Below, one piece after another: positions 3,594 to 38,800 of a stretch of 64,000 nucleotides of DNA. The stretch comes from Pelecanus crispus (Eukaryota; Chordata; Aves; Pelecaniformes; Pelecanidae), in contig NC_134675.1 of the NCBI RefSeq assembly GCF_030463565.1, positions 20,605,862-20,669,861 of the forward strand, written 5' to 3'. The position numbers were made by a program, and so were the translations under genes. A model generated the notes under the pieces. It did no database searches, was not told the origin of the DNA, and was given only the letters and a program-made list of their open reading frames with translations. The number at the start of each line of letters is the position of its first letter. The first letter of the stretch is position 1.

Positions 3594-3598
3594 GATTT

Positions 3599-14350: not shown

Positions 14351-15187
14351 AAATGTCTAAAATATTCTTTAATAAGAGCTAATGGCATGAGTAATTAAAG
14401 TTTAAATGTGAGTAGAAAGTAATTAAACAAAAGGCAGGTTTGGGGTCCCCTGCTTTAAAAGGCTACAGAACAAGCCCTAACATGTCTGAGGTGGGGACTT
14501 CATGAGGGTGGAAGGGCACCAAAAGGATGGAGGGGGCATGGACAAGTCTTAATGTGCCCAAGGGCTACAAACCCCTCCTAGGAGGCCCACCAAGGGACCC
14601 CCTGGGAGAACCCTGTTATGTGCAAAGAAGAGATCAATTCTTTGAGCTGAATTGAGAGGCCTGTGCATCTGGGCCTAGCCCAAAAAGATGACCATGCAGT
14701 GTTACTGGGGCAAATCTTGGGCAGTCACTGAGGTGAAGGGCTCCAGAGCAGACGCTCGTGCTGGGGCACCCTTGCTAATGTGGCAAAAGCGCAGGGAGAG
14801 AGAGGGCACCCCAGCCCCCCGCCTAGAGCGGGAAAGAGTGGGAAAGGGCGAGCTGCTGATGTGTGGCAGCTCTGACACAGCGTGGGCGGGGACAGGAGTG
14901 ATGGCGGCAGTTTAAAACCCAGCGTAACTGCCACTTGAGCGCAGTCACTGAGGCAAAGGGCTCTGGAGCAGATGCCAAACCACCTCACCTATAAAAGCAG
15001 CCCCCAGGGAGTGTGAGGGACCAGGAGCGCAGCGAATAGGACGGGTAAACAGGGCGTGGTGTGTCAGGAGGGCGTGGCACGTCAGTTTGCGTGGGCAGGG
15101 CATGCGGGGAAGGCCGAGTCCCCCTCCTAGCTCCAAAGGGAAACTCAACTAGTGGTCATCGCCCTCCCAGGAGAATACCTGGCAGCT

Positions 15188-18284: not shown

Positions 18285-19997
18285 ATCAATGGACGAGGAG
18301 AAGGCTGATGTACTCAACAACTTTGCCTTGGTCTTCACCAGCAACCTCTCTCCTCACCCCTCCTGAATCGATGGACCAAAATATGGGGAGCAGGGGAGTA
18401 AAGCCCCTCCCACTGTAAGGGAAGATCAGGTTTGAGACCACCTGAAGACCCTCAATGTACACAAGTCTATGGGACCTGATGAGATGCACCCCAGAGTCCT
18501 GAGGGAATTGGCTGATGTAGTTGCCGAGCCGCTCTCCGTGATATTTGAAAAGTCATGGCAGTCAGGTGAAGTCCCTGCTGACTGGAAAAAGGGGAATGTT
18601 GTGCCCATTTTTAAAAAGGGAAGAAAGGAGGACCCTGGGAGCTACCCACCTGTCAGCCTCACCTCTGTGCCTGGGAAGACCATGGAGCAGATCCTCCTAG
18701 AAGATATGCTCAAGTACATGGAGGACAGGGAGGTGATTCGAGACAGCCAGCACAGATTCACCAAGGGCAAGTCCTGCCTGACCAACCTAGTGGCTTTCTA
18801 TGAAGGAGTGACTGCATCAGTGGACAAGGGAAAAGCAATGGATGTCATCTACTTGGATTTCTGTAAAGCCTTTGACACAGTCCCCCACAACATCCTTCTC
18901 TCTAAATTGGAGAGATATGGGTTTGATGGGTGGACTGTTCGATGGATAAGGAATTGGCTGGATGGTCGCATCCAGAGGGTCATGGTCAATGGCTCGATGT
19001 CCACATGGAGACTGGTGACAAGTGGAGTACCTCAGGGGTCTGTACTGGGACCGGTGCTGTTTAACATCTTCATCAATGACATAAACAGTGGGATCAAGTG
19101 CACCCTCAGCAAGTTCGCAGACGACACCAAGCTGAGTGGTGCGGTTGACACACCAGGAGGACGAGATGTTTTCCAGAGGGACCTGGACAAGCTGGAGAGG
19201 TGGGCCTCTGTGAACCTCATGAGGTTCAACAAGGCCAAAGTCCTGCACCTGGGATGGGGCAACCCCCGATATCAGTACAGGTTGGGGGATGAAGAGATTG
19301 AGAGCAGCCCTGCAGAGAAGGACTTGGGGGTACTGGTAGATGAAAAGCTGGACATGAGCCAACAATGTGCGCTTGCAGCCCAGAAAGCCAACCGTATCCT
19401 GGGCTGCATCAAAAGAAGCATGGCCAGCAGGTCGAGGGAGGTGATTGTCCCCCTCTACTCTGCTCTGGTGAGACCTCACCTGGAGTACTGCGTCCAGCTC
19501 TGGGGTCCCCAGTACAAGAAGGACATGGACCTGTTGGAGCGGGTCCAGAGGAGGGCCACTAAAATGATCCGAGGGCTGGAGCACCTCTCCTATGAGGCCA
19601 GGCTGAGAGAGTTGGGGTTGTTCAGCCTGGAGAGGAGAAGGCTGCGAGAAAACCTTATTGCGACCTTCCAGTACTTAAAGGGGGCCTACAGGAAGGATGG
19701 GGAGAATCTTTTTAGCAAGGCCTGTTGTGACAGAACAAGGAATAATGGATTTAAACTAAAGAAGAATAGATTTAGACTAGACATAAGAAAGAAATTTTTT
19801 ACAGTGAGGGTGGTGAAGCACTGGAACAGGTTGCCCAGAGAGGTGGTAGAGGCCCCATCCCTGGCAACATTCAAGGTCAGGTTGGATGGGTCTCTGAGCA
19901 ACCTGATCTAGTTAAAGCTGTCCCTGCTCACTGCAGGGGGGTTGGGCTAGATGACCTCTAAAGGTCCCTTCCAACCCAAAGCATTCTATGATTCTAT
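18285..19997 (+). mobile_element. 5'-truncated CR1 nested in the larger CR1
   Basis: It inserts into the RT region of the host CR1 with AAGTG at 18280-18284 repeated at 19998-20002. It ends with the CR1 signature CATTCTATGATTCTAT. Its ORF2 frame differs clearly from its host, so it is another subfamily. Confidence 0.9.
18469..19911 (+). pseudogene. CR1 ORF2 C-terminal two-thirds (open reverse transcriptase frame)
   Basis: This is a 480-codon open frame covering most of the RT: motif [14 protein letters not shown] (residues ~127-140), [11 protein letters not shown] (~185-195), the catalytic FADD (216-219), and the C-terminal region ending DGSLSNLI. The endonuclease is absent because of 5' truncation, so it cannot be autonomous. 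The absence of stops over 1.4 kb suggests it is younger than most CR1 pieces here. It has no promoter of its own. Confidence 0.88.
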
Positions 19998-20913
19998 AAG
20001 TGCTGGGTCCTGCACTTGGGTCACAATAACCCCATGCAATGCTACAGGCTTGGGGAAGAGTGGCTGGAAAGCTGCCTGGCCGAAAACGACCTGGGGGTTT
20101 TGGTCGACAGCCGGCTGAACATGAGCCAGCAGTGTGCCCAGGTGGCCAAGAAGGCCAACAGCATCCTGGCTTGTATCAGGAATAGTGTGGCCAGCAGGAG
20201 CAGGGAGGTGATTGTTCTCCTGTACTCGGCACTGGTGAGGCCGCACCTGGAATACTGTGTCCAGTTTTGGGCCCCTCAATGCAAGAAAGACATTGAGGTG
20301 CTGGAGCATGTTCAGAGAAGGGCAATGAAGCTGGTGAAGGGTCTGGAGCACAAGTCTTATGAGGAGCGGCTGAGGGAAGTGGGATTGTTTAGCCTGGAGA
20401 AGAGGAGGCTGAGGGGAGACCTTATTGCTCTCTACAACGACCTGAAAGGAGGTTGTAGCGAGGTGGTGGTTGGTCTCTTCTCCCAAGTATTTAGCGATAG
20501 GACGAGAGGAAATGGCCTGAAGTTGCGTCAGGGGAGGTTTAGATTGGATATTAGGAACAATTTCTTCACAGAAAGGGTAGTCAAGCATTGGAACAGGCTG
20601 CCCAGAGAGGTGGTGGAGTCACCATCCCTGGAAGTGTTCAAAAAACGGATAGACGTGGCACTCTGGGACATGGTTTAGTGGGCATGGTGGTGTTGGGTTG
20701 ATGATTGGACTGATAATCTTAGAGGTCCTTTCCAACCTTAATGATTCCTAATTTTTACTTTCATTAAAGAATAATCCAGCCACCAAGCCAGGAAACATGA
20801 AATTGTTACTTACCCTTAATTGGTTTAGTGGTGGACTTGGTAGTGTTAGGTTAATGGTTGGACTGGATGACCTTAAAGGTCTTTTCCAACCTAAACGATT
20901 CTATGATTCTTTG

Positions 20914-21218
20914 TGTGGTCCTGCAATGCACAGACAACACTGTTCATGAAAATGGATAGCCAGAACAAAATGTGAACTTTAGAAGAACATGTTCATGGTG
21001 ACAGTAAGGAAAAGACCCTAAGGGATTCACTAAAAGGACCATGTGAACCAGAAGAACTGGCCAATGGGCCTGTGAATTGCAAACTAGATTTCGAGGTGAG
21101 TATCACATAGAGAGTGGGTGATGGTGATGAGGGTGGTGTTGGGGGAGCTCCCTGTGCCCATGGATCATGCCGCTACCTGTAAGACCATTATGGGGTGCAG
21201 GCTGGTGCTGTATGTCTT
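20914..21218 (+). repeat. Left terminal inverted repeat of the Polinton relic
   Basis: Its sequence matches the reverse complement of 37530-37815. Landmarks are AGAAGAACTGGCCAATGGGC (from 21050) and ACCTGTAAGACCATTATGGG (from 21176), each found inverted near 37650 and 37560. Divergence is roughly 20% plus indels. A CR1 tail abuts its outer side. Confidence 0.85.
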
Positions 21219-21532
21219 TCCTTGTCCTTAGGTTGATGATAACCTTTATAGAACATATTGAACAGCTCCAGCCGACTGAGGAGGGAGAAGTCAAATTGTA
21301 CTATTATCTGTTCGTGTTTTTGTCTGGGCTTGTAACAGCTGAAGAAAGGAGAAAGGGCATAGAAGTGACAGTGATATTTGTGGGAGGAGGAAAAATCCTG
21401 GAGAAGTCTTGAACGGCAACCAACTCCTCTCGTACCCTGTTAACAAAGTTTCTTTGTACTTGAGTTAAATTGATTGTCCAGTGTTTCCTTTTGTACATGT
21501 GTGTAGTAGCAGCATGTCAGTAGACATGTCTA

Positions 21533-22478
21533 TGATGCCACTTCTATTAAAAGAGATTTACTTGCTCCTGGGGAGGTAGGAAGCTTTGGGGGTATAAATC
21601 CCCTTTTTGAAGCTGCTAAAAGGTGAATGGCTGATCTGAACAGAAGCCAAGTGGCAACCTGACTTGCAAACCAGGACACTTGCAGCTTATACCAGGAGGC
21701 AAGAAAGCACTTAAAAAGAAGCAAGATGACTGTGGCAGAGGTGGATGCACAATGGCAAGCAGACTTGGTGGCTACATAACAGTTTTCCAAGCACAATGAT
21801 GGTGTTAAGTACATCTTAGTGGTGATAGATGTTTAATCCAAGCATGCCTGGGCCATTGGCATAAAAGGTTCTGAAATAGCTGGGGCCTTTAAAACAATTT
21901 TTAGCAGGGGACACAAGCCTCAGAAATTACAGGCTGAGCAGGGAAAAGAATTTTTAAACCAGCCTTTAAACAAGCTGTTAAAGCAGTGTAATGCTCACCA
22001 TTTTGTTACTAATGATGAGGTAAAAGACTCTGTCATAGAGTGGTTTAACAGGATGCTCAAAACCAAGATGTGGAGATATTTTACACTGGGCAACACCTTC
22101 CACTACGCTGATGTGTTGTCAGAGTTTATAAAGAGCTATAACCATAGCTTCCACAGAACTATCAGAGCCAGGCCTGTGGACGCGAACCCTTTAAACTCTG
22201 CAAGGGTTTGGAAAACGGTACGGGGGGGGGGGGGGGGGGGCATGTTTAAAATGAAAGAATCTGCTCCTCTGCTGAAAAAGGGAGACCACGTCAGGGTGTC
22301 TAGAACAAAAAAGAGATTTGAGAAAGGTTATGAGCAGATGTTCACAGATAAAATTTTTGTAGTAGCTGAAATTGTGAGAAGGGGACAGATACCTGTGTAC
22401 TGCTTAATAGACTATGATCGTGAAGCAATCGAGGGGGCATTTTGCCCTGACGAACTTGAAAAAAGTGAATCCTCATGA
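21533..22478 (+). pseudogene. Polinton integrase relic
   Basis: This is an rve/DDE-type integrase as found in Mavericks. The N-terminal part reads GSFGGINPLFEAAK (about 21570). The core begins VDAQWQADL (21741). The first acidic residue is in YILVVIDV (about 21805-21830), immediately followed by a stop. The region of the second reads LQAEQGKEF (about 21930), with the usual Asp apparently replaced. The third lies in SVIEWFNRMLKTKMWRY (about 22032-22080). The C-terminal chromo/SH3-like part reads KKGDHVRVSRTKKRFEKGYE and ends near 22478. At least three stops and a 19-G run (22222-22240) interrupt it. The family joins element ends to target DNA. This copy is inactive. Confidence 0.88.
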
Positions 22479-22555
22479 GGACAGAATCTACAAAATTGAG
22501 AAGATCGTTGCTGCCAAAGGGAAAAGAAGAAAGAAACAGCTGCTGATGAAGCGGC

Positions 22556-22857
22556 ATGGCTGACCCCAGAAATTTCAGTTGGGTAGAAGCCTCCCAAGTC
22601 CAGGACACCTAGTGACTTGGGTTGGAGCGGGGGGGGAAAGGATGGTGGACGGGGGTTTTGATATCACTCTACCCAGCAAAGCCAGTGGCATGATTTTACC
22701 GCAAAACACCAGCTCAAACTTCACCGTGCAGCTGGAGAGGCCCCTGGAGATCTCAGGGAAGTGGGAGGTGGGGCTGGTGGAAATACAGTACCTGAACAGC
22801 TGGAATAATATCAATGAAGATGCCATCTTTGAAATAGCGCTGCAGGGTAAGACATAG
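22556..22857 (+). pseudogene. Polinton-associated structural-type ORF, N-terminal part
   Basis: This is a short frame directly downstream of the integrase. It reads ITLPSKASGMILPQNTSSNF (from about 22663), then LERPLEISGKWEVGLVEIQY. In my recollection of Polinton and adintovirus gene sets, a protein with this LPS...N...F...GxWEVxLxEI pattern follows the integrase, and its role is not settled. The frame ends at 22857, far shorter than expected, and then meets the CR1 tail, so it is truncated. Identification rests on this motif and its position. Confidence 0.65.
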
Positions 22858-23214
22858 AAGTATACTTTTGCAGAAAGACTATTATCCATCCCTCTTCATA
22901 TTGATGGAATAGAATAAATAGACTATTTCAGTTGGAAGGGACCTATAACAATCATCTAGTCCAACTGCCTGACCACTTCAGGGCTGACCAAAAGTTAAAG
23001 CATATTATTAAGGGCACTGTCCAAATGCCTCTTAAACACTGACAGGCTTGGGGCATCGACCACCTCTCTAGGAAGCCTGTTCCAGTGTTTGACTACCGTC
23101 TCAGTAAAGAAGTGCTTCCTAATGTCTGGTGTAAACCACCCCTGGCACAGCTTTGAAGCATTCCCATGCATCCAGTCACACGATACCACGGAGAAGAGAT
23201 CAGCACCTCCCTCT

Positions 23215-24549
23215 TATCATGACCCAAACTGGGCTGTCCAGAGAGGATCATGGAGGTTCTGTGATTCCCTTGGGCTAAATTAAGGTGAAATGACACCAAA
23301 TGATCGATTAAACACTTTATTGATGGTAAACACCAACCTGAACTTGGAAAGCATAACGGTAGGCAACCCAAACCAGGAAAGCACAACGATAGGCAACATA
23401 GCTTCTAATTCAAATACTTATAAGAGGAAAGGAAAAGGAAGAAAGACGAGAGAGGGAGATATCACCAGCCTTGGATCCAACAATGTTGATGGTAAACACA
23501 GCAGTCCTCTGGCAGCGGGTGCGCTGCTCGTGGAGCACAGGGCCAGGCGCTGGCGCCAGGTGGGAGAGACAGGTCTGCAGCAGGAGCGGAAACAGCACCT
23601 TGGAGTCCTCCGATGGTGGGGGTGAGCATGTGGCTCACCGAAGTTGTGGTTTTTATAGGTGTCGTGGTTTAGCCCCAGCCAGCAACTAAGCACCATGCAG
23701 CCGTTCGCTCACTCCCCCTGCCCCGGTGGGATGGCAGAGAGAATCAGAGGAGTAAGGGTGAGAAACACTCCTGGGTTGAGATAGTTTAATAATTGAAATA
23801 AAGTAAAATAGTAATGATAATAATAATGATAATAATAATAATATACAAAGCAAGTGATGTACAATGCAATTGCTCACCACCTCCTGACCGATACCCAGAC
23901 AGTTCCTGAGCAGCGATCACTCCCCCCTGCCAACTCCCCGCAGCTTATATACTGAGCATGACGTCATATGGTATGGAATAGCCCTTTGGCCAGTTTGGAT
24001 CAACTATTCTGGCTGTGCCCCCTCCCAGTTTCTTGTGCACCTGGCAGGGCATGGGAAGCTGAAAAGTCCTTGACTAGCATAAGCAGTACTTAGCAACAAC
24101 TAAAGCATCAGTGTGTTATCAGCATTATTCTCATGCTAAATCCAAAACACAGCACTATGCCTGCTACTAGGAAGAAAATTAACTCTATCCCAGCTGAAAC
24201 CAGGACAATAAGGCCAGTCCCCGCCTCTAGTCTTGCCCCCCTTGAGGCTTGTTCCAGAATGTTCTCCATCTTCTGTACAGGCCCCACTGTGGGGGGTGGT
24301 GGTTGCGAGGGCTCTTTCGGGTAGTCCTGAGCCCCTTCCTCAAATGAACTCTGCATGACCTTTGGCCATAAGAGGGCAGAACTGCATCTTCCAACATGAC
24401 TCCCAGCTCTGTGCCAATCTGCCAGGCTTCTCACCTGTGGTGCTATGCAGACCCCAATTTATCATCATGGAGACCTTAACTTGTCTCTTTGCAGACCTTA
24501 ACTTGCCTCACCACAGTGTTTGAGGCATTAACTCTTTCAGTCCCTGACA
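23215..24549 (-). mobile_element. Solo LTR-B with nested LTR-A
   Basis: The perfect TSD is CCTCT (23210-23214 and 24550-24554), created inside CR1. The minus-strand element reads TGTCAGGGACTGAAAG... to ...GGTCATGATA. Without the nested LTR-A it is about 780 bp. The polyadenylation signal is the reverse of CACTTTATTGATGG (about 23312), and a TATA-like CTATAAAA context spans the nested insertion. Confidence 0.9.
23660..24207 (-). mobile_element. Solo LTR-A nested in LTR-B
   Basis: The ends are TGTCGTGGTTTAGCCC...CAGGACA. It interrupts the TTTTATAGGCCAGTCC sequence that is intact in the LTR-B at 57910. The flanks ATAGG and ATAAGG are an almost perfect TSD. It contains an intact palindromic CRE, TGACGTCA (23959-23966), beside its TATA box. 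Confidence 0.88.
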
Positions 24550-24559
24550 CCTCTCCACT

Positions 24560-26553
24560 TCCCTTCCTCAGGAAGCTGTGGAGAGCAATGAGGTTGCCCC
24601 TCAGCCTCCTTCTATCCAAACTAGAAAAACCCAGAGTCCTTGGCCGTTCCTCATAGGACATGCCTTCCAGCCCTTTCACCAGCTTTGTTGCCCTCCTCTG
24701 GACACATTCACATCCTTCTTAAATTGTGGGGCCCACAACTGCACACAGTACTCAAGGTGAGGCTGCACCAATGCTGAATACAGCAGGATAATCACCTCTT
24801 TAGACCGGCTGGTTATGCTGTGTTTGATGCACCCCAGGATGTGGTTTGCCCTCTTGGCTGCCAGGGCACACTGCTGACTCCTATTGAGCCTGCTGTCAAC
24901 CAGCACCCCCAGATCCCTTTCTGCAGGGCTGCTCTCCAGTCACTCCTCTCCCAATTTATACTTGTGCCCAGCATTACTCCATCCCAGGTGCAGAATCCAG
25001 CATTTGTTCTTGTTAAATTTCATCCCATTAATCATAGCCCAATGCTCCAATGTATCTAGATCCCTCTGCAAGGCCTCTTGTGCCTTGGGAGAGTCAACAG
25101 CACCTCCCAGTTTAGTATCTTCAGCAAACTTGCTAATGGTGCATTCAGCTCCTGCTTCCAGATTGTTGATAAATATATTGAACAGAACTGGCCCTAGAAT
25201 TGAGCCCTGAGGAACACCACAGGTGACTGGTCGCCAGCCAGATGTAGCCCCATTCACTACAACCCTTTGAGCTCTGCCGTTCAGCCAGTTCTTCACACAG
25301 CGCACCATGTACCTGCTCATCCCACAGTTGGACAACCTGTCCAGAAGGATGCTGTGAGGGACAGTATCAAAAGCCTCACTAAAATCCAGAAAAACTACAT
25401 CCACCGCTTTCCCTTCATCCACTATAGGCAGGTGACCTTATCATAGAAGGCTATCAAATTCGTTACAGAGGACTTTCCCTTTGTGAACCCATGTTGACTG
25501 TGCCTGATGATTGCATTAATCTTTAAATGCCTTTCAATTTCACCCAGTATGATCTTCTCCATAATTTTTCCAGGTACTGAGGTTAGACTAAAAGCTCTGT
25601 AGTTTCCTGGGTCTTCCCTCACGCCCGTCTTGGAAATTGGAATAACATTGGCTAGCTTCTAGTCAGTGGGTCCTCCCCAGACTCCCAAGGTCTTAGGTAG
25701 ATGATCAAGAGGGGTCCTGCCATAACATCCACTAGCTCCTTCAGTACTCTGGGATGAATCCCATCAGGCCCCATGGACTTGTGAAGATTCAGCTGATACA
25801 ACTGGTCCCTTACAATTTCAGTGGCCACAAATGAAAAGTCACTGTTCCCACACTTGTGGTCCTCCGACTCAGGGGACCGGGCAGCCCAAGGTCTATCAGT
25901 ATTATTAAATACTGAGGCAGAAAACACATTGAATGCCTCTGCTTTATCATCATCCCTCTTTGTCAGTTGGCCATCTTCATCAAGTATCAGTCCAATGTTT
26001 TCCTTAGAACTCCTCTTGCTATTAACATACTTTAAAAAGCCTTTTTTTGCTGTCTGACACAACACTGGCCAGTTTCAACTCTAGTAACTCTATTTGAGCT
26101 TTGGCCTTCTGTGTTTTCTCCCTACACATGCGAATCATAGCTCTGTAATCTTCCTGCAAAGTCTGATCTCGCTTCCAGAGATCATACCATTTCTTTTGCC
26201 ACCTGAGTTCCAAGAGGAGTTCCCTGTTCAGCCAAGCTGGTCTTCTGCCCTGCTTGCTTGGCTTTTGACACAATGGGATTGCCTGCTCCTGTGCTTTTTA
26301 AAAGGTGGTTCTTAAAGACTGACCAGCACTCATGGATTCCTAAGCCCTCAAAAGCAGATTTCCAGGGGACGCTGCTAAATAGCTCCCTGAATAGATTAAA
26401 GTTTGCTCTCTTGAAGTCCAGAGTAGCAACTCTGCTGTCCTTTTTTCTCATTACACTGAAAATTTTAAACTCGACCATTTTGTGATCCCTGTGGCCAAGA
26501 CAGTCATTTACCATCACATCCCCCATGAGTCCTTCTCTATTCACAAATAGCAA
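24560..26553 (-). pseudogene. CR1 ORF2 relic (endonuclease C-terminus to RT end)
   Basis: Minus-strand pieces in order are the endonuclease end (LFVNREGLMGDVM, then GHRDHKMVEF, the histidine motif, 26553-26470), the linker, RT with FSLTSVPGK and QHGFTKGKS (25600-25480), motif [12 protein letters not shown] (about 25380), SGW...[10 protein letters not shown] (about 25210) and a FAEDTKLGG motif (about 25120). The usual FADD thus has its first Asp changed to Glu. Several frameshifts break it. The N-terminal endonuclease is missing. Confidence 0.85.
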
Positions 26554-26574
26554 GTCTAGGAGGGTGTCACGAAT

Positions 26575-27710
26575 GCAGGTTTGTGAATCCTGCTGATTAT
26601 GCCAATTTACTATGAATGAGTGACTTTACACAGTTTGATTTAGTAACAGTTATAATTTACTTGTAGGAAATCGCAGAATTTGATTATAATGTTTTTAATA
26701 GCACTCAGTCATCAGTGATTATCAAAGTGATTAGACAGAATTGGTCAAAACAGTGACTTAGTTACAGATTCGAAGATGGCAAGGTTCACTCTATTACTAC
26801 ATGGAAGTGCATAAAGGAAAATTAAATTATACTGAGTTGGAATGATTCACAAAGGGATTGCGTATGTAGGGGATAAGGAGGACCCTCGCGTTGAGTCACG
26901 AGGTTCAGAGTAGACCCCCCCTTGCTTTCTAAACTCAGAGAGGAGTCTAGGTGCGGCTAGGTCCAATCTTAGTCTCAGACTTGGTCAACGGTTTAATAGA
27001 AATAAGGATAAGGCAGCAGTATAAGACTCACTTTGAAATTAAATCGTACGTCTACAGACTACTTAAATCGATTCACACATGCACACTCACAAATAAGAAT
27101 GCATATATAAAAATGGTATACCTGTTAAAAATTCCCCTTGAGTTCAGTGAAATACTCACGTCGAATGTCTTGGCATTTCTGAACAGGCGAGGGTTGAGCC
27201 TCGAGGAGTGAAGGGTTTCAGCCCAGGCTCCACTGTCAGTCTTCGGCAATGGATTTCTGGTTGTAGCAAACTTTCAGAGTTTGCTGGCTCTGAGAGTTGT
27301 CTCACTCAGAGGGAGATGCTGGTGCAGCCCGCAGCAGTCCAGGAGAGCTCAAAGGGCCTCACTTAGGACTGCTGTTTATAGGATTGTGAGATGATTGACT
27401 TTAATCACCAGTAAATTTCCATCCGAGCCACAGTTTGGATCTGTAGTTGCTGGAATTCCAGTAACGATGATACCACTCTGTTTCAAGGCTGTCAGGGGTA
27501 GCTGTTTGTTCTTGCTCCCCTCATTAGCCATAATATGAAGATCTTGATAAGGACAGGGCCGCTCTCTGCTTCAGCCATGTAGGAGTTTCTGGTACAATTA
27601 AGGGGCGCTTAACTGACTAACTCGCTACACAAAAGCATCGGCCTGGAATTCCTGAGATTGTAAAGCCATTGAAGAGAAAGAGGAATGGAGGGGGGGGATG
27701 CACCACCACA
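26575..27710 (-). mobile_element. Solo LTR-G, copy 1
   Basis: The perfect TSD is GAGGG (26570-26574 and 27711-27715), inside CR1. The ends are TGTCACGAATG...ACCACCACA. Orientation is tentative and rests on a minus-strand TATA-like CCTATAAACAGC near 27383. Its right 405 bp (27306-27710) are identical to 40414-40818, while the left part differs clearly. Confidence 0.88.
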
Positions 27711-27756
27711 GAGGGCTAGTTGGCTCCCTGAGTGCTTGTGACAAGAAATTATCTTC

Positions 27757-28497
27757 TGTCAGGACCTGAACTGGGCTGTCCAGAGAGAATCGTGGAGGTT
27801 CTGTGATTCCCTTGGGCTAAATTAAGGTGAAATGACACCAAACGATCAATTAAACACTTTATTGATGGCAAAACAACAACCTGAACTGGGAAAGTGCAAC
27901 GGTAGGCAATGTGGGTTCTAATTTGAAATACCTATAAGAGGAAAGTAAAAGGAGAGAGAGAGAGAGAGATATCACCACCCTTGGATCCTTCAACGTCAGT
28001 GGTAAACGCGGCAATCCTCCAGTGGTGGGCGTGCTGATCTTGGAGCGTAGGCCCTCCGGATGCGGCAGCAGCGCCAGCACTGGGTGGGAGATGCAGGTCC
28101 GGAGCAGCAACAGCATGGAGTCTCCCAGTGTTGGGGGCACACACATGGCTCCTCGGAGTTGTGTCTTATAGTCTAGTCCCTGCCTCTAGTCTCTCCCCCC
28201 TTGAGGCTTGTTCCAGAATGTTCTTCATCTTCTGTGCAGGTGCCACTGTGGGGGGGGTGGTCGTAAGCCCCTTCTTCAAATGAACTCTGCATGACCTTTG
28301 GCCATAAGAAGGCAGAACTGCTCATCCTCCTACACTCCTCCCAGCTTCTTGCCCATTGGCTTCTCACCAATGGCTTCTCACCTGTGGTGCTATGCAGACC
28401 CCAATTTGTCGCCATGGAGACCTTAACTTGTCTCTATGTAGACCTTAACTAACCTCACCACAATGTTTGAGACATTACCTCTTTCAGTCTCTTGACA
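27757..28497 (-). mobile_element. LTR-B, 3' LTR of the provirus
   Basis: On the minus strand it runs from TGTCAAGAGACTG to ...GGTCCTGACA. The AATAAAGTGTTTAATTGATC polyadenylation context is near 27850. A (GA)n tract lies at 27954-27970. It adjoins env sequence on its right. Confidence 0.85.
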
Positions 28498-28659
28498 CCA
28501 CCCCGTGGCTCAAACATTGTATAATCTTCGTCCAGGGTGGTGATTCTCACATAATGGATAGGAAAGAGAGAGAGAGGATAGAGAAGATAAAAGTCGCAAG
28601 ATCATACATTTTACTGATCATCAAGGACAAGAACCCACAGCCCAATGCTATAAATGCTA

Positions 28660-29450
28660 TAACAGTATTTAAAAGACTCAAAATAACTTCCCCCTACAGG
28701 TGGTCCCCACCAGGATATGTTATTACAGGGAATGTATCTTCAACCATAGGTTTTTCTTACAGGTCTTTGTTGTCGGCAGACTTTGTGGTACACTGGCGTT
28801 CAAAATTTCACAACAAGATGCATTCCATAGGGTTTCCCATGTAGAGTTGTTTGGGAGTTGATACAAGGTCCCTCTAATGTCTTCCCATGTGGGATTTGGA
28901 TTTGATACATTTCGAATTTCAAGTGCCTCATCTAGTATTTTTGTAAGATTGCCAATTTAAATCCTTCCTCCACCAATCCAGGGAGGGCAACACACATTCC
29001 CTGATTGGTTTGATCCCAAATGTGTACGAACCCTTGTATCAATTCCCAGGCCAAATTGGCAGATTTTCCCCATGTTCCCACTATCCCAATAACAAGCAAA
29101 ATAAGGCAAACTTTACCACCCATAATGTCATCACACTTTCTATGAACTCAAAACAGGCATACCAATTCCCCCCCCACAATCACAAAAAGAGTAAGGTCAA
29201 TCCCTTTACCCCAACAGTGGTGGAGGAGAAATAGATTTTCCAATCCACCTTTCCCCAATACAAAACAGGCCTAATAGAATCAGGCAACCAATGCAAACAA
29301 TGACCCACTCAGAAACCGACAACATACGTTCCACGGTGGGTTTCTGACAACCTGTAAAACATATACATAAAGATGAATGACAATTAAAAGGATGGGACAA
29401 TCCACCGGGTATGAATTTGGTGGTCTTTCCCGTGTGTGTCAATGGCTACC
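28660..29450 (-). pseudogene. ERV env fragment
   Basis: Minus-strand frames include MGGKVCLILLVIGIVGTWGK (from 29123), a hydrophobic segment of signal-peptide type at the start of a surface glycoprotein. Further on (about 28890-28760) is a broken frame with three N-glycosylation sequons (NNST, NASC, NASV). Another hydrophobic stretch, VIVCIGCLILLGLFCIG, lies at about 29330-29280. The transmembrane subunit and fusion region are not seen. Position next to the 3' LTR supports env. It is heavily truncated and non-functional. Confidence 0.65.
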
Positions 29451-29489
29451 CAAGTATAAAGATTGAGTGGGTTTTTTTAAGCTTAGGGG

Positions 29490-30235
29490 TATCTCTCCCA
29501 CCAGTCTCCCAGATCTCCCAGTAGATCTCCCAGTAGATCTACTAGGACACGTTGTCCCGGATAATGGAGCAGGTTCACAGGGTCTTTAGTCTCCTTTTTC
29601 CCGGGGAGTATAGATGGAGGTTTAGGACAAAACGCAGTATGTCGTGGGCATCTGTTAATTCCCCAGCAGCTATTGACTCTATATACTGCATCCGACACCC
29701 GCCATGTCCATCCAGGTTCATGAGGTTTCAGGGTTCACTTCAGGAGCCCATTGGTACGTTCAACAATGCCATTTGCCTGGGGGTAGTGTGGAGTGTGAAA
29801 AATCCATTGGATCCCTTTGTCCCGTGCCCACTCCTGAACCACCCCGGCAGTCAAGTGGCTTCCATTATCTGATTGGATTGATTGGGATTTTGGTAGGTAA
29901 CTAAACCATAGCTTCAACCCTTTCACAGTGTTGTCCCCCGTTGCCCGTCATACTGCTTCTGCTTGAGTTAGTCCTGACACCACTTCAACCCCTACTAGTA
30001 CATATTGTTTCCCATCAGAGTTCCGAAATGGACCGATATAGTCCACTTGCCAAGTTTCCCGGAGGCCCTTTCCATTCCGTAAATGGAGAGGGGGTTCTTG
30101 CAAGGGATGTCTTCCTAGCCAGGTATGACACTGACTACAGGCAGAAATCTACAGGCAGAAATGATCATGTTGCACAGTTCCTAAGTAACGGGCCAGCCCC
30201 TGCCACCCTGCCACCGGCTTCTTTGAAAAGGTCTT
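29490..30235 (-). pseudogene. ERV integrase relic
   Basis: The core is readable at 29926-29735: SIQSDNGSHLTAGVVQEWA (second Asp), then FHTPHYPQANGIVERTNGLL (catalytic Glu). The C-terminal domain (HYPGQRVLVDLLGD, about 29560) carries a small tandem duplication of CAGTAGATCTCC (29519-29540). The N-terminal zinc-binding part (29941-30235) is broken by stops. It is continuous with the RT part on its right. Confidence 0.8.
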
Positions 30236-31602
30236 TAACCCCTGAATGACCACATTTCACGTGTAACCACTCTAACAGATGCTCCCACTTTACTTTGTTG
30301 CCGTATAATTTTCTCAGCCTCCTGTAAAGCTAAACTAACCACAAAGAGGCTCTTTTCCCAAACTGAATACCGTTTCTCTGCATCTTTAAAACTGTGTGAA
30401 TAAAACCCGATAGGACAAGTCAGGCCTTCAGGTCCTCTTTGCCACATGTGTATTGATAGCCCGTGAATTGCAGAACCCCATTCAATGTGGAGTGGATCAG
30501 TTGGGTGTATTGGCCCTAAAGCCTGATATACCCCAGCCTCAAAAATCAATAGCTTCAAGGCTTCCTCATGGATGGGGGTCCAATCCCAAGAGGCCCTTTT
30601 GCGTGTCAGGTCATATAGGAGTCGAGCTATGATGGAAAAGTCTGGAATGTGTTTTCTCCAGAATACCAACAGGCCTAAGGCATGTTGGAGTTCCCTCTTG
30701 TTTCTAGGCATTTTCACTTGTTCAAGGGTAGTCAAGGTTTCGGGGGGAATACACACTGTCCCACCCCTCCACCAGATACCCAGGAACCTTACTTCCGAGG
30801 ATGGGAGCTGTATCTTTTCTGTCGGAATCTGGAGTTCTAGACTCTCCAGATGAGTGATTATTTTTGTTTGGATCTGTCCCACTACGTTGGTATCAGGGCC
30901 GCCAATCAATATATCATCAATATATTGATATACCTTAACTCCCTTCTCAGGGGTAACACGGGCAAGCTCCTGCGCCAGTGCATAGTGGGCGATGGTCGGT
31001 GAGTGGCGATATCCCTGAGGAAGGCATGTAAAAGTAAACTGCACCCCTTCCCAGGTAAAAGCAAAACGATCTCTGTCTGCTTCCTGCAAGGGAACCATAA
31101 AAAACATGTCTTTTACATCAATAGTTGCCAAAATCTGGTGGGCTTGTTCCTTCATAGTAGCAGTCAGCTTGGCCATGTTAGGCACGGCAGCAGTCAAAGG
31201 GCCTGTGTTAGCATTTAGGCGCCGATAGTCAATTGTCATTCGCCACTTTCCAGTGGGTTTACGGACTGACCACACCGGAGAGTTATAAGGTGAGTGAGTT
31301 GGGATAATTATCCACTTTTCCCACAACTCGGTTATTACTGGGGTGATTCCCTCCCTTGCCCCTAACAGCAAGGCATAGGGTTTCACATTAACCAACTGGA
31401 GGCACGCAGTTTCCTGTACGCTCTCTAAAATGTGGTCCACCATAGGCTTTTTAATCGAGAAGGGGTCTCCCCTTTCCATAGGATCTAATCCACCTGTCCA
31501 ATATGCTACTCTCTGGGTCAGAGACCAGGGCGCTCTATTATCATTTGTGGTTATAAAAATCCCTGGTCCCCAATACCCTCTTGCCTCATCCTCACTCAGC
31601 AA
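30235..31602 (-). pseudogene. ERV reverse transcriptase (455-codon open frame)
   Basis: A long open frame covers the RT fingers and palm: HSPYNSPVWSVRKPTGKWR, then LATIDVKDMFFMVPL (first Asp), LPQGYRHSPTIAHYAL, and the catalytic YQYIDDILIGG (about 30935-30903). It continues into the connection region (EKRYSVWEKSLFVVSLALQE), after which RNase H is lost. An upstream protease is not visible; at its left edge the gag remnant nearly abuts. The frame is open but lacks protease, RNase H and a working integrase, so the gene is defective. Confidence 0.85.
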
Positions 31603-31641
31603 GATACGGTCATCCCCGGTAAGAGATACTCTCCATATGTA

Positions 31642-32450
31642 TTAATTTTCCATTTCTCGGGGTCCCCAGGAATATTTTTCGTGAATTTTAGCCAAATCAG
31701 TAGGGGAATAGGGAACGGTACGGGTGGTAACTTGTTGAGCTCCTCCTTGACCATCATTTATAGTCTCGGTCTTAATTAGAGGCCACATTTTGGCTTCCTC
31801 CCTTCCAGAGGAATATACCTCTAGGTCTTTAAGAGGGTACAGCAATTCTGATTCTTTTCCCCTGTCAGAGTTTGCATCCATATCTACGCTGATTTGGGAA
31901 CAGGTTTCATCTAATTGCTCCCTTAATATTCTCTCCTGCTCCAAAGCCTCTGCCAAAGCAGCATGTAGCCTCTGGTTAGTCATCGCTCAGCAGTGAGCTG
32001 AATTGAGAGACTTCTCGTCTCATTCTCTAATTGTTCCCGCTGTGCTGCCAACAGGGCAGCTCCTAAAACCGCACATATTCTGTCCACTACTGCTTGCAGA
32101 TCCCGCTGTGCTGCCACCAGGGCAGCTCCTAAAACTGCACATACCAATGCTTTCCCCTTTCCAAGCCTCAATCTGTTCCTTAGCCAAGGTGGAGATTCTG
32201 TCCGCTACAGCTTGTGGATCGTGCCAATTATTATGGGCCCAAGTCATACCAGGGGGAGAAGGTCGGGCGTTATAGCCCTCTAATCTCTCCAGGAGAGGGG
32301 TACAGTCTACAGCCGGACCTCCCAGGGAGGCCATAATGAGTACACAATTATAGGGATCAGATCCCTTGTTAGTCCTCTGAGGACTGGTCTCCCCTTGTGT
32401 ATGACTCCTCTCAGAGAGGGGCCGCAGTAAAGGCCTAGTCTCAACGATCG
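31642..32450 (-). pseudogene. ERV gag remnant
   Basis: Reading leftward from the 5' LTR: a start-like MASLGGPAVDCTPLLERLEG (about 32332), then a coiled-coil/repeat stretch with the duplicated unit AVLGAAL.AAQR (32140-32040), then EALEQERILREQLDETCSQ. It ends in MWPLIKTE and RTVPYSPTDLAKIHEKY (about 31715-31665), which resembles the N-terminal start of a retroviral capsid. The rest of capsid and nucleocapsid is missing. Gag would form the particle shell; this is a fragment. Confidence 0.65.
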
Positions 32451-32492
32451 CTTTAGCACCAGCAAGGGGATTCTGTCTGTGATGCCAATTTA

Positions 32493-33213
32493 TGTCACGA
32501 TCCAAACTGGGCTGTCCAGGGAGGATCGTGGCAGTTCTGTGATTCCCTTGGGCTAAATTAAGGTGAAATGACACCAAATGACTGATTAAACACTTTATTG
32601 ATGGTAAAAACCAACCTGAACTTGGAAAGCGTAACGGTAGGCAATGTGGGTTCTAATTGGAATACTTATAAGAGGAAAGGAAAAAGAGAAAAGGCGGGGG
32701 GGAGGAGAGGGAAAGAGGGAGGGATTGATTGCCACCCTTGGATCCCACGATGTCGATGGTAAACATGGCAATCCTCTGGTGGTAGGTACGCACGCGGCAA
32801 TCTTCCGGTGGTGGGCGTGCACGTGGCTCCTTGGAATTGCGTCTTTTATAGGCTAGTCCCTGCCTCTAGTCTCGCCCCCTTGAGGACTTATATGGTTCTT
32901 GTTCCAGAATGTTCTTCATCTTCTGCACAGGTGCCATTGTGGGGGGTGGTCGCAAGGGGTCTTTCGGGTGGTCGTGAGCCCCTTCCTCAAATGAACTCTG
33001 TATGACCTCTGATCATATATGGTGAGTTGTAAGGCACATCAGAAGGCGGAACTGTGCATCCTCCGACACGCCTTCCCAGCTCTGTGCCAATCAGCTTCTT
33101 ACCTGTAGTTTAGTGGTGCTATGCAGATCCTAATTTGTCGCTATGGAGACCTTAACTTGTCTCCCCACAATGTTTGAGACATCAACATACATTAACTCTT
33201 TCAGTCTCTCACA
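32493..33213 (-). mobile_element. LTR-B, 5' LTR of the provirus
   Basis: On the minus strand it runs from TGTGAGAGACTG to ...GATCGTGACA. The AATAAAGTGTTTAATC signal is near 32600. Its right neighbour is Polinton polymerase sequence. Confidence 0.85.
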
Positions 33214-34520
33214 GTCATAGACCACCTTCTGCATGTTCCAGGGGTGCCTGGTTTCTGTTGTCCATTTCTGTTTGTTCCTGATGATAGAACGCTACTCTAT
33301 CATGATCTTTTTAGGGTCATCACTGTCTGGATTTATGCCGTAATCCAACATGAGATCCCTCAGAGCCTCAAAATTGATCTTTTCTCTGTTTGCTGCATTT
33401 AGAATGATGCTTTTAACCTTTAAACAACACTTTCCTTCAAATTGCATGTAGCTGTAGGATTTGGGGCCTGATGACACAAACTCAGTAATGTTCTCATCTG
33501 GCAGCAACTTGCTTGTCAGCTTGTCTAAATAGTCCCTGAGCGGGTGGGTTTCAATCCCGTGGACGACTCAGGAATATCACAGAGACTGTGTCATGATAAA
33601 GGCAATTGTCTTGCAGGACATCTAAGAAATTGTAAAGCTCTAAACACACATATGCTGTGGTGAAGCAAGCTATAAAAATGTTAGTGTTACACTCCAGGGT
33701 CATGTGTCCTTTGGCATTCTTCCACGAGACAACAGCCACATCCTTGTCAATAAAATTACAAGAAGACACATCATAAGCCAGAGAAAATAGGTAACCATAC
33801 ACCTCATCTGGTTCTCATACTATGGTGGTGTTGGGTAGGTTGGATCTCTGTCCAAATTTTCTCCACAGAGAAAAACAGCTTTGCAACTTGGCATTTGGGC
33901 AGGGTTTTTATTAATATGTTCAGGCCACAAAATGACACCTTCTTTCTGCCTGTAATCTTCAACATATCATCATTATTTGTGCACCAGGCCGTGCAGCCTG
34001 AAGGTTCCTGCTTCTGGTGGAGGTGGAGTTTTATATAATCTGAGAAAAGGCTGCTGCCCCTCTTTTCAAAATGCCAAACCTCATAGATTTCACAAACCCT
34101 GTAGCTCTTCTCCAGAGCCTTGTTCAGTTCTGGGGAATACCAGGTACCCACAAGGGCTCTTTCTTCATCACTGTGGGTGCAGAGGGCCTGGCAGGTTTCA
34201 GCACAAGTGTGGCACAGGGGAAACAAATAGCTTCCCATTTACCCTCATGGGAAGCACAGGGAAAAAGAGCCTACAAGGTGGGCACACCTTTACTTTGACC
34301 ATTCTGAAGTAGGCTGTCAAGTTCTCAAAATTCTCAAAAATAACTGGGGTGCCCCAGAGGGTATTGTTTTATTTTGCTGATGAAGGGATAGAGACTAGTG
34401 AAATCATCGTAATGTATCTTTTCATCGGGGGCTTCTTTGTAATACAGACAAATGGCATTTGTCCTGCTGCTGAAAAGCACATCTCTGCACGGTGTGGGCA
34501 GTTATAAAAGTCAGTTCTTC

Positions 34521-35046
34521 ACCAGCCGAAGAGGGAGACAAGGATGCTTAGCATAAAATTACCAAGGGAATTTATTATCTTATTTTAGTTATGTGCATAG
34601 CAGTGCCCCAGCCTAATGCATGGAGGACCCCAATACACAGGAAAGCAGGGTTTATATATGTTACAATACAGTTGTGTAGACCAATCAAATTACTTATGTT
34701 AAGGGGTGGGCTAATCAGTTACTATTGCTCATGTAATTGGTATGTACTTGTCCCATGCAGGATCAGTACGTGCTTGTCCCATGCAGGTGGTGCGGACGTA
34801 TGGTCAGTGGCGTGTTCATCTTCATTGTTCTAAACCAATGACCTGTGCAGGTGTGTGGGGGTTTATCCTGGATTCTGATCAATTGCAGTTCTGGCTGTGG
34901 TTATATGCCTGGTTTCATTGGAGGGTAAATTTCCTATTGTTTTATTGTCTGTATGGGGTGTTCTCAGTCAGTAAGAGCTGGCTTAGGTTGGGTCTTCAGG
35001 TCACATCGACCCTGAGGTAAAAGCTCATAGTCTCAGGTAGTGTTCA
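34521..35046 (-). mobile_element. Solo LTR-I, copy 2, nested in the polymerase
   Basis: The flanking 6-bp duplication is TTCTTC (34515-34520 and 35047-35052). The left end resembles LTR-I copy 1 (GGGAGACAAGGATGC versus AGAGACTAGGATGC). The 6-bp TSD would suit an ERVK-type integrase. The first base pair of the left end is not the usual TG. Confidence 0.7.
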
Positions 35047-35512
35047 TTCTTCTAAGCAAGTTGTATTGCAGTTAGCATCTTGCCTTTGACACAGTTTGGT
35101 CCTGGCTAAGAACTCTGATTTTGTCATAGCGACCAACTTCCGCTCCCATATAGATCTGATGTTAAAATCTGCTCTCTTTAGGTAGTCCATTTTTTGTTGT
35201 GTTGTGCAATACAAATATCTGAAGGTGGCCCCCGCCAGAGGTTTCCAGTCATTTTCATGATAGCATTTGATAGAGCCATGGAAAAACCACCCATTAAATT
35301 CAGCAGCTGTTGGCACCCCATCAATGACTGCATAGCCACCCAATAAGTAGTATCCTACTTGATATTCACCACCTTGTAATGCATGACAGATTTAAATATT
35401 TTTCTTTTCAGTTGCATACTTAAGCCATTGAATAGAGGGGGATGAATATCTCTTTTTCCTCCAATGCTGGCCATCTGGAGGGAGGAGTGCAACCGTGTTA
35501 CATTTAAGGAAC

Positions 35513-36068
35513 TGTCCTGGTTTTGGCTGGGATAGAGTTAATTTTCTTCCTAGTAGCTGGCATAGTGCTGTGTTTTGGATTTAGTAGGAGAAGAATGTTG
35601 ATAACATGCTGATGTTTTAGTGATTGCTAAGTACTGCTTATGCTAGTCAAGGACTTTTCAGCTTCCCATGCTCTGCCAGGTACACAAGAAACTGGGAGGG
35701 GGCACAGCCAGGATAGTTGATCCAAACTGACCAAAGGGCTATTCCATACCATATGACGTCATGCTGAGTATATAAACTGGGGGGGTTGGCCGGGGAGCAG
35801 CGATCGCTGCTCGGGAGCTGTCTGGGTATCGGTTGGCGGGTGGTGAGCAATTGCATTGTGCATCACTTTATTTTTTTTTTTTTTTTTTTTTTTTGTTATT
35901 ATTATCATTACTAATTTACTTTATTTTGATTATTAAACTGTTCTTATCTCAACCCAGGAGTGTTTCTCACTCTTACTCCTCCGATTCTCTCCCCCATCCC
36001 ATCGGGGTAGGGGGAGTGAGCGAGCGGCTGCGTGGTGCTTAGTTGCTGGCTGGGGCTAAACCACGACA
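35513..36068 (+). mobile_element. Solo LTR-A nested in the polymerase
   Basis: A complete LTR-A, TGTCCTGGTTTTGGC...AACCACGACA. The R region has a run of ~23 T (about 35872-35894) where other copies have ATT/ACT repeats. It has an AP-terminus-like GCGATCGC and an AATAAA-like end. No direct TSD is visible (GGAAC left, GTCCT right), so one edge may have been altered. Confidence 0.85.
35754..35776 (+). promoter_or_regulatory. CRE palindrome and TATA box of LTR-A
   Basis: A perfect ATF/CREB palindrome TGACGTCA (35754-35761) lies 7 bp upstream of TATATAAA (35769-35776). The same CRE is intact in the LTR-A copies at 23959-23966 and 59515-59522 and mutated in those at 1940 and 49945. Confidence 0.7.
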
Positions 36069-36930
36069 GTCCTTTTTGAGTATGTGGTTTAAACCAGTAT
36101 GTGGACATGCAAGTAGAGGCCAGTGTCATATACTGAAATGGATCTATACGGTGATAAACCTTCACCTTTTCATTGTCCTCTTTCTCATAGAATGTGAAAT
36201 GGGTATTCACCATAATCTCATTTCTGTATGATCTGCAGGCCTCCCTCAGACTTTTTGCATCTTGTTGGCAGTAGTAACTCAGTTCTTCTTGCAAGTCAGG
36301 TACGTGTCCCCTTTAAACTCCCATTCTCCTTCAGTTTTCCTTTCCACCCCTTCTTCTTCATTCTAAGGCACATCCGGTGTAATTCCATGGCAAAAATGTA
36401 GTTTGGGACATGTGTTCTGGTTTCCTGTATACATTCCATGTCATAGATAATATAGCCCTGCCCTGCTTCTGGAGTTTTGATCATGGGCATGAAACACTGG
36501 TACTGGTTTACATTACAGATCTCTTCATAGTGCATTCCACACTTCCAGCCTTTACATCCATGCTATTTTTCTACATAGGTCTTACACTTTTAACAGAAAA
36601 TCATAACCAAACGATCAGTTTGTTTTTTAATAGCCAGGGCTTTGTGCCTCTGTAAACATTTCCCAGACCTGCACAACAGCCTGCAGCTGGGGCACCTTAT
36701 CCTTGTCTCTAAGTTAACTGCATAGTTGCAAGACAAGCAGAGCTGGCAATAACATTTACAGCTGTGGCCATGGTTATAGAATGTATGACAAAGCTCACAA
36801 AAGTTTCTTTCCCTAAATACGTTCCTGACATCCTTAACACCATAATAATGTTCATCATGTAAAAGGAGGAAACAGGTCTTGGGATATCTAAGACTGTAAT
36901 TTGGCTTAAAAATCCCCCAACCCTTTTTCC

Positions 36931-37529
36931 TGACTGAGGAGAGAGACTAGGATGCAAAGTATAGAATTACAAGAGTAATTCTTTTATTCATGTGCGTGAG
37001 GTGTCCCATCCAAATGTGGGCACCCCAAATGTGGTTTTACACATGGTTCTTATACCTTTCAAGTGTTCAGGTACAACACTAATTGACTAATCACTACTGT
37101 TTACTAATCATAGTAAAACTTCACAAAGCAACTATATTTCTATGATGTCATTGTCCACATGCTTCTCTATTGATCTAGACTTTCCTGGAGTCAGTCTTGC
37201 TATAGTTACTTATCTGTGATGCCAGACAATGGGAGGGTTTCACAGAGGTGTTAGAGGGGCTAGGATGCTGGCATTATCTTGGTAGTCCAGGAGTATCTTT
37301 TATCTGTGGTAGACAGCTTTAAGATTCCAAGAAGCAAAGTTCTTATCTCCAGGGCAGGGCTGTCCTTCTCCTTGTGATGAGCTGGGGTCCTTTAGTTTGC
37401 TTACTTAAGCGTGGCTATTCAGTATACAATGTGAACAAGAGATATATATATATATTAAGAAAGTTAATACAATTTCATACTATTAAAGACTAATTGGTAT
37501 AATACTTAGAGAATGAGTTTTTCCTAACA
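36931..37529 (-). mobile_element. LTR-I, copy 1
   Basis: The ends are TGACTGAGGAG...TTTCCTAACA. The minus-strand polyadenylation signal AATAAAAGAATTAC is near 36985. It sits between polymerase sequence and the right TIR. No TSD is seen, so flanking sequence has probably been lost. Confidence 0.65.
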
Positions 37530-38010
37530 ACGTATAGCACCAGCCTGCACCCCATAATGGTCTTACAGGTAGTAGCTGTAAGATCCCTCACAACCATGGG
37601 CAAAGGTCTCTGTGTGACAAGTCAAAATCAAGTTTGCGATTCACAGGCCCATTGGCCAGTTCTTCTGGTCTGCATGGCCTTTTTCAGGAATGCCTTAAGG
37701 TCTTTTTCTTATTTTCCTCACACACATGTTCTTCTGAAGTTGGCATTTTGTTCTGGTTTTCCATTTTTGCAGCCAGCATTGCCCGTGCCTTGCAGGACTG
37801 CGCAAAGCCCAAATTTTGCCCCAGTAACACTGTATGGTCATCCTGTTGGGCTGGGCCCAGATGTAGGAGCTTCTCAGTCCAGCTCACAGGACTGGTCTCT
37901 GCATGTGACAGGGTTTTCCCTGGCGGCCCCTTGGTGTGATTCCTAGGAGGGGTTCATAGCCTTTGGGCACATTCCAACTTGTCTGTGCCCCAGCCCCATC
38001 TTTTGGTGCC
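37530..38010 (-). repeat. Right terminal inverted repeat of the Polinton relic
   Basis: 37530-37815 is the inverted counterpart of 20914-21218. 37816-38010 would be its outer continuation, whose left partner was removed by a CR1. A minus-strand frame (37887-37684) runs through part of it, and fragments of the same reading (EELANGPVN) are legible in both TIRs, so an ORF may once have overlapped the repeat. Confidence 0.8.
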
Positions 38011-38800
38011 TGTGGTGGGTTAACCTTGGCTGGGTTCCAAGTGCCCACCAAGCCACTCTCTCACTCCCCCTCCTCAGCAAGACAGAGTAAGAAAATAAGA
38101 TGAAAACGCTCATGGGTCGAGATAAGGACAGGGAGATCTCTCACCAATTACCATGACAGGCAACACAGACTCAACTTGGGAAAGATTAATTTAATTTATT
38201 GCCAATTAATCACAGAGCAGGATAATGAGAAATAAGAACAAATCTAAAAACACCACCTTCCCTCCACCCCTCCCTTCTTCATGGGCTCAACTTCGCTCCC
38301 AACTCTTGTACTCTGCTGCTCCTTCCTCTTCATGCTGTTCACCTGCTCCAGTGTGGGGTCCCTCCCACAGGGTACAGTCCTTCATGAACTTCTCCAAAGT
38401 AAGTCCTTCCCCCGGGCTGCAGTTCTTCACAAATTGCTCCAGCGTGGGTCCTTTCCACAAGGTTCAGTCCTTCAGGAACAGAATGCTCCAGCATGGGTCC
38501 CCCATAGGCCGCAATTCCTGCCATGAGCCTGCTTCTGCTTGGGCTCTCCCTGGGCTGCAGATTCCTTCAGGGCACATCCACCTGCTCCAGCGTGGTGTTC
38601 TCCACAGGTGGCAGGGTGGCTATCTGCTCCACTGTAGACCTCCATGGGCTGCAGGGAGAAAACCTGCTTCACCATGTTCTTTACCACGGGCTGCAGGGGG
38701 ATCTCTGCTCTGGCACCTGGAGCACCTCCTCCCCCTCCTTCTTCACTGACCTTGGTGTCTGCTGGACTGTTACACATTTTTCTCACTCCTCTCACAGGAG
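38011..38800 (-). mobile_element. LTR-C (minus arm of a fold-back pair)
   Basis: It starts TGTGGTGGGTTAACC, the reverse of the LTR-C end, and runs through the reiterated array (about 38340-38620) to the reversed GACCTTGGTGTC block. It then meets an oppositely oriented LTR-C near 38800. The usual TATTGGG start is missing at the junction. Confidence 0.8.

What the first reader, a model, noticed from the sequence alone, without database searches (positions are those of the whole stretch)
20914..38010. A Maverick/Polinton DNA transposon relic in a bird chromosome, with matching inverted ends
Integrase, a structural-type ORF and a protein-primed DNA polymerase of Polinton type lie between inverted repeats that I could align (20914-21218 with 37530-37815). 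Polintons are virus-like elements related to adintoviruses and are scarce in birds compared with fish and reptiles. Finding the TIRs shows that the two gene groups, now separated by more than 10 kb of CR1 and ERV, belong to one insertion. Capsid, ATPase and protease genes are gone, and key residues of integrase and polymerase are changed. Presence and gene identity are seen in sequence; single-element origin is inferred.
Basis: partly seen in the sequence, partly recalled or inferred. Interest (0 to 1): 0.85.

Follow-up and report, generated by a model that had tools for sequence, protein, structure and literature searches.

The report
Decayed Maverick virus-transposon in bird chromosome
This stretch of what looks like a bird sex chromosome holds the broken remains of an ancient virus-like mobile element (a Maverick, or Polinton) whose matching ends can still be recognised although later jumping genes have landed inside it; such relics are known from birds, but one with both ends visible, and a second copy close by, is a useful fossil.

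Summary
The inverted repeats are real: 20909-21215 pairs with 37530-37807. The left repeat continues at 14515-14722, pairing with 37807-38010; CR1 LINE sequence (14723-20908) split it at one base. The element spans at least 14515-38010, not 20914-38010. Beside the left repeat lies a nearly full-length, broken chromodomain integrase and the start of one more gene; on the right-repeat side lie broken pieces of a family-B DNA polymerase. Both groups point inward, as in vertebrate Mavericks. A second relic 73 kb downstream (C45:20716804-20722338) has the same repeat and polymerase (main blocks 82-87% identical), about 1.1 kb from a SYK exon with a stop codon. In the 169 kb examined, the repeat occurs only at these places. 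About 5-6 kb of Maverick sequence remains, against roughly 17 kb in intact elements. No capsid, ATPase or protease gene was seen, but references were lacking. Target-site duplication and end motif are untestable because the ends are lost. Bird Mavericks, including chicken and turkey remnants on chromosomes 2 and Z, are in print. Verdict: real, correctly interpreted, new member of a known kind. W chromosome likely but unproven; species unknown.

The parts
14515..14722 (+).
   Evidence: 79% identical to the reverse complement of 37807-38010, 175 bits; shuffles at most 26.5 bits
14723..20908 (+). CR1-type LINE sequence (probably at least two nested copies) that split the left repeat
   Evidence: Frames with endonuclease PF03372 (16170-17132) and reverse transcriptase PF00078 (18436-19908); ends where the repeat resumes. 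CR1 label and number of copies judged by eye
20909..21215 (+). Inner part of the left terminal inverted repeat
   Evidence: 71% identical, gaps counted, to the reverse complement of 37530-37807, E 3e-43; shuffles at most 27.4 bits
21546..22578 (+). Broken Maverick integrase (rve core plus chromodomain; stops and a frame change)
   Evidence: 48 hits, best 1.2e-70; TBLASTN E 3e-105, chromodomain in another frame; second acidic residue of the triad substituted
22642..22869 (+). Start of the gene that follows the integrase; minor capsid gene by position in vertebrate Mavericks; truncated
   Evidence: One database relative of 2 candidates, unnamed: 83% identity over 72% of the 97-aa query, E 2.1e-28; TBLASTN 79% over 76 residues. 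The name rests only on gene order in PMC8097293
22999..33213 (.). Nested CR1-type and retroviral insertions in place of the centre of the element; boundaries approximate
   Evidence: Reverse transcriptase domains at 24940-25434 and 30235-31641; matches to other repeats in the window
33214..34487 (-). Polymerase, palm region and 3' part, several frames
   Evidence: 83% identical over 1310 columns to copy 2; motif A piece PF03175 E 9e-4, under the cut-off
34488..35091 (.). 604 bp inserted in the polymerase relative to copy 2, nature unknown
   Evidence: The flanking blocks overlap by a few bases in copy 2; no second copy in the 169 kb
35092..35453 (-). Polymerase, middle block
   Evidence: 82% identical over 377 columns to copy 2
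35513..36068 (.). Nested dispersed repeat, type not determined
   Evidence: Further copies near 3076-3594, 23660-24207, 49945-50520 and 59200-59764
36090..36930 (-). Polymerase, 5' region; about 0.4 kb present in copy 2 is missing here
   Evidence: Blocks 78-91% identical to copy 2
36931..37529 (.). Unassigned stretch between polymerase and right repeat
   Evidence: No match to copy 2 and mostly single-copy in the 169 kb
37530..38010 (-). Right terminal inverted repeat, cut at its outer end at 38010/38011 by a dispersed repeat read as an LTR
   Evidence: Pairs with both left segments and with the repeat of copy 2 (75%, E 5e-76); the repeat starting at about 38011 has further copies starting at the same base, near 1048, 12925, 41234 and 61779; the LTR label is recalled

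Best explanation
One Maverick (Polinton) element of the vertebrate type inserted here and has decayed neutrally. It had long inverted ends, an inward-pointing integrase and structural module at the left, and an inward-pointing polymerase at the right. CR1-type LINE sequence later split the left end, a dispersed repeat (probably an LTR) cut the outer right end, and LINE and retroviral insertions together with deletions replaced the centre. A second related relic about 73 kb downstream decayed in parallel. Shown: the repeats, the gene identities, order, nesting and decay. Inferred: insertion by its own integrase, protein-primed replication in life, the W location. No present function is proposed.
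For: Inverted repeats far above 200 shuffles each. Left repeat interrupted at one base by LINE sequence. Nearly full-length chromodomain integrase; a profile of 27 relatives finds retroviral integrase and chromobox structures; the tree puts the window in supported sets of 7 and 13 rows. Polymerase by 78-91% DNA identity to copy 2, 2 of whose 9 pieces pass PF03175. In 169 kb the repeat lies only at the left end, the right end and copy 2, each beside Maverick genes. Differences between the two polymerase copies are spread nearly evenly over codon positions, 95/711, 87/716 and 104/715, as for sequence without coding constraint. Layout agrees with PMC8097293 section 7.
Against: The window's own polymerase pieces stay under the Pfam cut-off, and one 144-aa piece found no relative. 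No capsid, ATPase or protease gene was seen. End motif and target-site duplication cannot be seen. The clocks disagree: the arms differ by K2P 0.23-0.29 depending on the alignment, the polymerase copies by only 0.15.
Confidence: 0.93

Rival explanations
1. Two different Maverick insertions in opposite orientation, one leaving the integrase half and one the polymerase half, rather than one element.
For: Two relics lie on this contig, so insertions are clustered; copy 2 is itself a polymerase half with no integrase half found in the fetched flank.
Against: The two halves are complementary and inward-pointing as in one element. Left-right arm K2P is 0.232-0.235 in the four-row alignment, against 0.288 (left inner arm to copy 2) and 0.369 (right arm to copy 2, including an unrelated outer stretch). 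This is weak support: another alignment gives 0.285 for the inner arms, and without an outgroup the three ends cannot be rooted.
Confidence: 0.07
2. The second relic is a duplicate of the first made after insertion (segmental duplication), not a separate insertion.
For: Same contig; polymerase K2P only 0.15 with flat codon positions.
Against: The right ends of the two copies are less alike (75% over 389 columns) than the polymerase blocks, and not clearly closer to each other than the two arms of copy 1. I did not compare the host flanks of the two copies specifically.
Confidence: 0.3
3. The integrase comes from another rve-integrase element (Ginger transposon, Ty3/gypsy or retrovirus), unrelated to the polymerase.
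For: The rve core is shared with retroviral integrases; gypsy-type integrases are also found in Polintons (PMC2836005, start of abstract in a search listing).
Against: The closest full-length relatives (P0001-P0004, P0006) are chromodomain integrases at 51-57% identity, matched over most of their length, and the repeat that flanks the integrase also flanks both polymerase copies.
Confidence: 0.02

Closest known systems
Vertebrate Mavericks (Barreat and Katzourakis 2021, PMC8097293; section 7 and passages seen)
   Same: Inward-pointing integrase and polymerase modules on opposite strands; long terminal inverted repeats (theirs 46-1447 bp, here at least 481)
   Different: Most genes missing, outer ends lost, heavily nested; intact elements average 16.9 kb
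[quoted passage not shown] passage in PMC8097293)
   Same: Defective copies in bird genomes
   Different: Here both inverted ends are recognisable; I did not see which of theirs keep ends (over all vertebrates 2,166 elements lacked discernible ones)
Chicken and turkey Polinton remnants on chromosomes 2 and Z (Guizard et al. 2016, PMC4992247; passage seen)
   Same: Interrupted integrase and polymerase frames; a sex-chromosome location is likely here too
   Different: No terminal repeats mentioned in the passage; orthology untested

Membership tests
Maverick/Polinton | Long terminal inverted repeats | tested here: met
Maverick/Polinton | rve integrase with chromodomain | tested here: met
   of 48 relatives 38 carry PF00665 and 27 carry PF00385. 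The window fragment itself passes neither Pfam model
Maverick/Polinton | Protein-primed family-B DNA polymerase | tested here: met
   PF03175 over the cut-off in 2 of 9 pieces of copy 2 and 78-91% DNA identity of the window pieces to copy 2; the window's own best piece is under the cut-off. That this family covers the protein-primed group is recalled; priming itself was not tested
Maverick/Polinton | Two gene modules on opposite strands pointing inward | tested here: met
   Integrase on +, polymerase on -, compared with PMC8097293 section 7
Maverick/Polinton | Capsid, ATPase and protease genes | tested here: inconclusive
   8 selected frames of the centre gave no such Pfam match; only the start of the gene after the integrase remains; no vertebrate references were available; a genome-wide protease search did not complete
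Maverick/Polinton | 6-bp target-site duplication and conserved 6-bp end motif | not testable with these tools
   The right repeat is cut at 38010, so the element's edges are unknown
Ginger or LTR-element integrase | Integrase not linked by its terminal repeat to a family-B polymerase | tested here: not met
   The same repeat flanks the integrase and both polymerase copies

The most novel reading that the evidence does not exclude
The relics are a virus fossil shared by the two sex chromosomes: copy 2, lying by a decayed SYK exon, would be the W counterpart of the Z-linked Polinton polymerase reported in chicken and turkey, inserted before Z and W stopped recombining here, so that one viral insertion dates sex-chromosome divergence and gives a long clock for Mavericks in birds.
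Probability: 0.12. Interest if true: 0.65.

Novelty: new member of a known kind. Interest (0 to 1): 0.42.

Why it matters
Mavericks are virus-like elements known in birds only as degraded copies (PMC9683012, passage). A relic with both inverted ends recognisable shows that a whole element, not only a gene fragment, inserted in this lineage. Two relics near each other on a probable sex chromosome could become datable markers for when these elements were last active and for sex-chromosome history.

Tried and rejected
Viral contigs (IMG/VR): no relative in four scans, with the integrase alignment, two polymerase pieces of copy 2, and a motif pattern. Phage records: no match to the integrase. Pfam alone does not recognise the window's integrase fragment. 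Search for the lost outer right end: no match beyond 14515. Second integrase half or second end for copy 2: none in the fetched stretch. Three weak hits of intact integrases elsewhere in the 169 kb (29738-30124 beside a retroviral frame, and C45:20673811 and C45:20703437; E 3e-4 to 5e-6, 21-27% identity) were not followed up. The segmental-duplication reading is kept as a rival. Papers: 8 searches; W chromosome with Polinton and passerine found 0 papers, which covers only this open-licence library.

Of the whole-genome searches only the first was answered. So the copy number in the genome, a Z counterpart and SYK elsewhere are untested.
Full report
What was checked. The finding claims an integrase, a structural-type frame and a protein-primed DNA polymerase between inverted repeats. 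BLASTN of 20600-21600 against 36900-38600 gives one minus-strand match, 222 of 311 columns identical, E 3e-43. The right arm is continuous through 37807, while the left arm stops at 14722 and resumes at 20909. Between them lies LINE sequence of CR1 type with endonuclease (PF03372) and reverse transcriptase (PF00078) frames. So the left repeat has at least 515 bp, and the element spans at least 14515-38010. In 200 dinucleotide shuffles of each left segment the best score against the right arm was 27.4 bits.

Is the repeat the element's own? In 169 kb of this contig (20 kb upstream, the window, 85 kb downstream) the repeat occurs at the left end, the right end and one further place, C45:20716804-20717188, at E <= 1e-4. 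That place lies beside a second polymerase relic, 73 kb beyond the right end. Each occurrence sits next to Maverick genes, which argues against a chance or unrelated repeat.

Integrase. The frame 21837-22478 has 48 relatives at E <= 1e-3 among 111 candidates, best 1.2e-70 and 57% identity; 38 of the 48 carry rve (PF00665) and 27 a chromodomain (PF00385). The window fragment itself passes neither in Pfam. TBLASTN of P0001 (367 aa) covers its residues 15-325 at 21567-22526 with stops, and 303-350 at 22435-22578 in another frame: nearly whole but broken. In an alignment of 11 relatives and the window frame the second acidic residue of the catalytic triad is substituted (triad assignment recalled). 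A tree of 45 of the 48 relatives (P0046-P0048 left out) plus the window puts the window in a supported set of 7 rows (98/94), mostly short fragments, inside 13 rows (100/99) that include a bowfin protein, P0033. The branch joining the window to its nearest rows is weak (89/36), and apart from that bowfin protein no row of the set has an organism name, so kinship to other bird elements is not shown.

Next gene. After the integrase comes the start of another gene, with one unnamed relative at 83% identity over 72% of the query. In vertebrate Mavericks the minor capsid gene stands there (PMC8097293, section 7), so 'structural-type' is plausible by position only; Pfam gives nothing.

Polymerase. 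Pieces on the minus strand between 36930 and 33214 align with copy 2 in six blocks, 78-91% identical, the four larger ones 82-87%. Of 9 pieces of copy 2, 2 pass the PF03175 cut-off (29.7 and 31.7 bits against 25.8), and copy 2 is the only place reported in the whole genome for that family (4 candidates scored, counts are lower bounds). Of the window's own pieces only the motif A piece (E 9e-4, 18.6 bits) and one other (E 0.05) touch the family, both under the cut-off, and a 144-aa piece found nothing. Motif C departs from the canonical form (recalled) in both copies, in different ways. Relative to copy 2 the window copy has 604 bp inserted (34488-35091), a nested repeat (35513-36068), a loss of about 0.4 kb, and no counterpart of the first part of the copy 2 region. 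Adding the recognised parts gives about 5-6 kb of Maverick sequence (my sum of the parts listed), against a mean of 16.9 kb for intact elements.

Decay and age. Differences between the two polymerase copies fall almost evenly on the three codon positions, 95 of 711, 87 of 716 and 104 of 715, so they arose mostly without coding constraint. K2P is 0.15 for the polymerase and 0.23-0.29 between the arms of the window element, depending on the alignment. These disagree and I cannot say which is the better clock. CpG observed/expected is 0-0.22 in four element pieces and 0.29 in the whole window. With avian neutral rates of roughly 1.5-3 per billion years per site (recalled), an arm divergence of 0.235 corresponds to about 40-80 million years; this is an inference, not a date.

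Setting. Copy 2 begins 1.1 kb from the first coding exon of SYK on the same strand. No further SYK exon for residues 140-260 was found in the fetched stretch. SYK is Z-linked in birds (recalled). At least 56% of the 169 kb, and 64% of the window, is repeated within it. Bird W chromosomes are reported to hold over 55% transposable elements (PMC8310711, start of abstract in the listing). A decayed SYK exon in very repeat-rich DNA fits a W chromosome; it is not proof.

Comparison with what is known. PMC8097293 reports terminal repeats of 46-1447 bp, mean size 16.9 kb and inward-pointing modules (section 7), and defective copies in several bird groups (passages). PMC4992247 reports Polinton remnants on chicken chromosomes 2 and Z, conserved in turkey, with the polymerase best conserved on Z (passage). 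[quoted passage not shown] This relic fits that picture and adds both inverted ends, the nesting order and a second nearby copy. It is a new member of a known kind.

Limits. Whole-genome searches after did not complete, so copy number, a Z counterpart and further ends are unknown. No vertebrate Maverick capsid, ATPase or protease references were available.

Noticed in passing
L004:310-720 (C45:20715309-20715719): First coding exon of SYK with an in-frame stop and a missing codon; decayed, possibly the W copy of a Z gene.
   Followed up: partly
window 15809-17988 and 53574-55753: Two LINE stretches in opposite orientation, 98.4% identical over 2180 bp: a recent pair or a local inverted duplication.
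   Followed up: no
window 38011-41234: Stretches of one repeat family in opposite orientations side by side, cutting off the outer right end of the Maverick.
   Followed up: partly
L005:3761-6496 (minus strand): A 911-aa open frame of retroviral look (judged by eye), so some retroviral insertions on this contig may be much younger than the Maverick.
   Followed up: no
window 61066-61139 (minus strand): tRNA match (Rfam, 37.9 bits), the only Rfam match in the window at the gathering threshold.
   Followed up: no
window 34488-35091: 604-bp stretch inserted in the polymerase relative to copy 2, without a second copy in the 169 kb, origin unknown.
   Followed up: no
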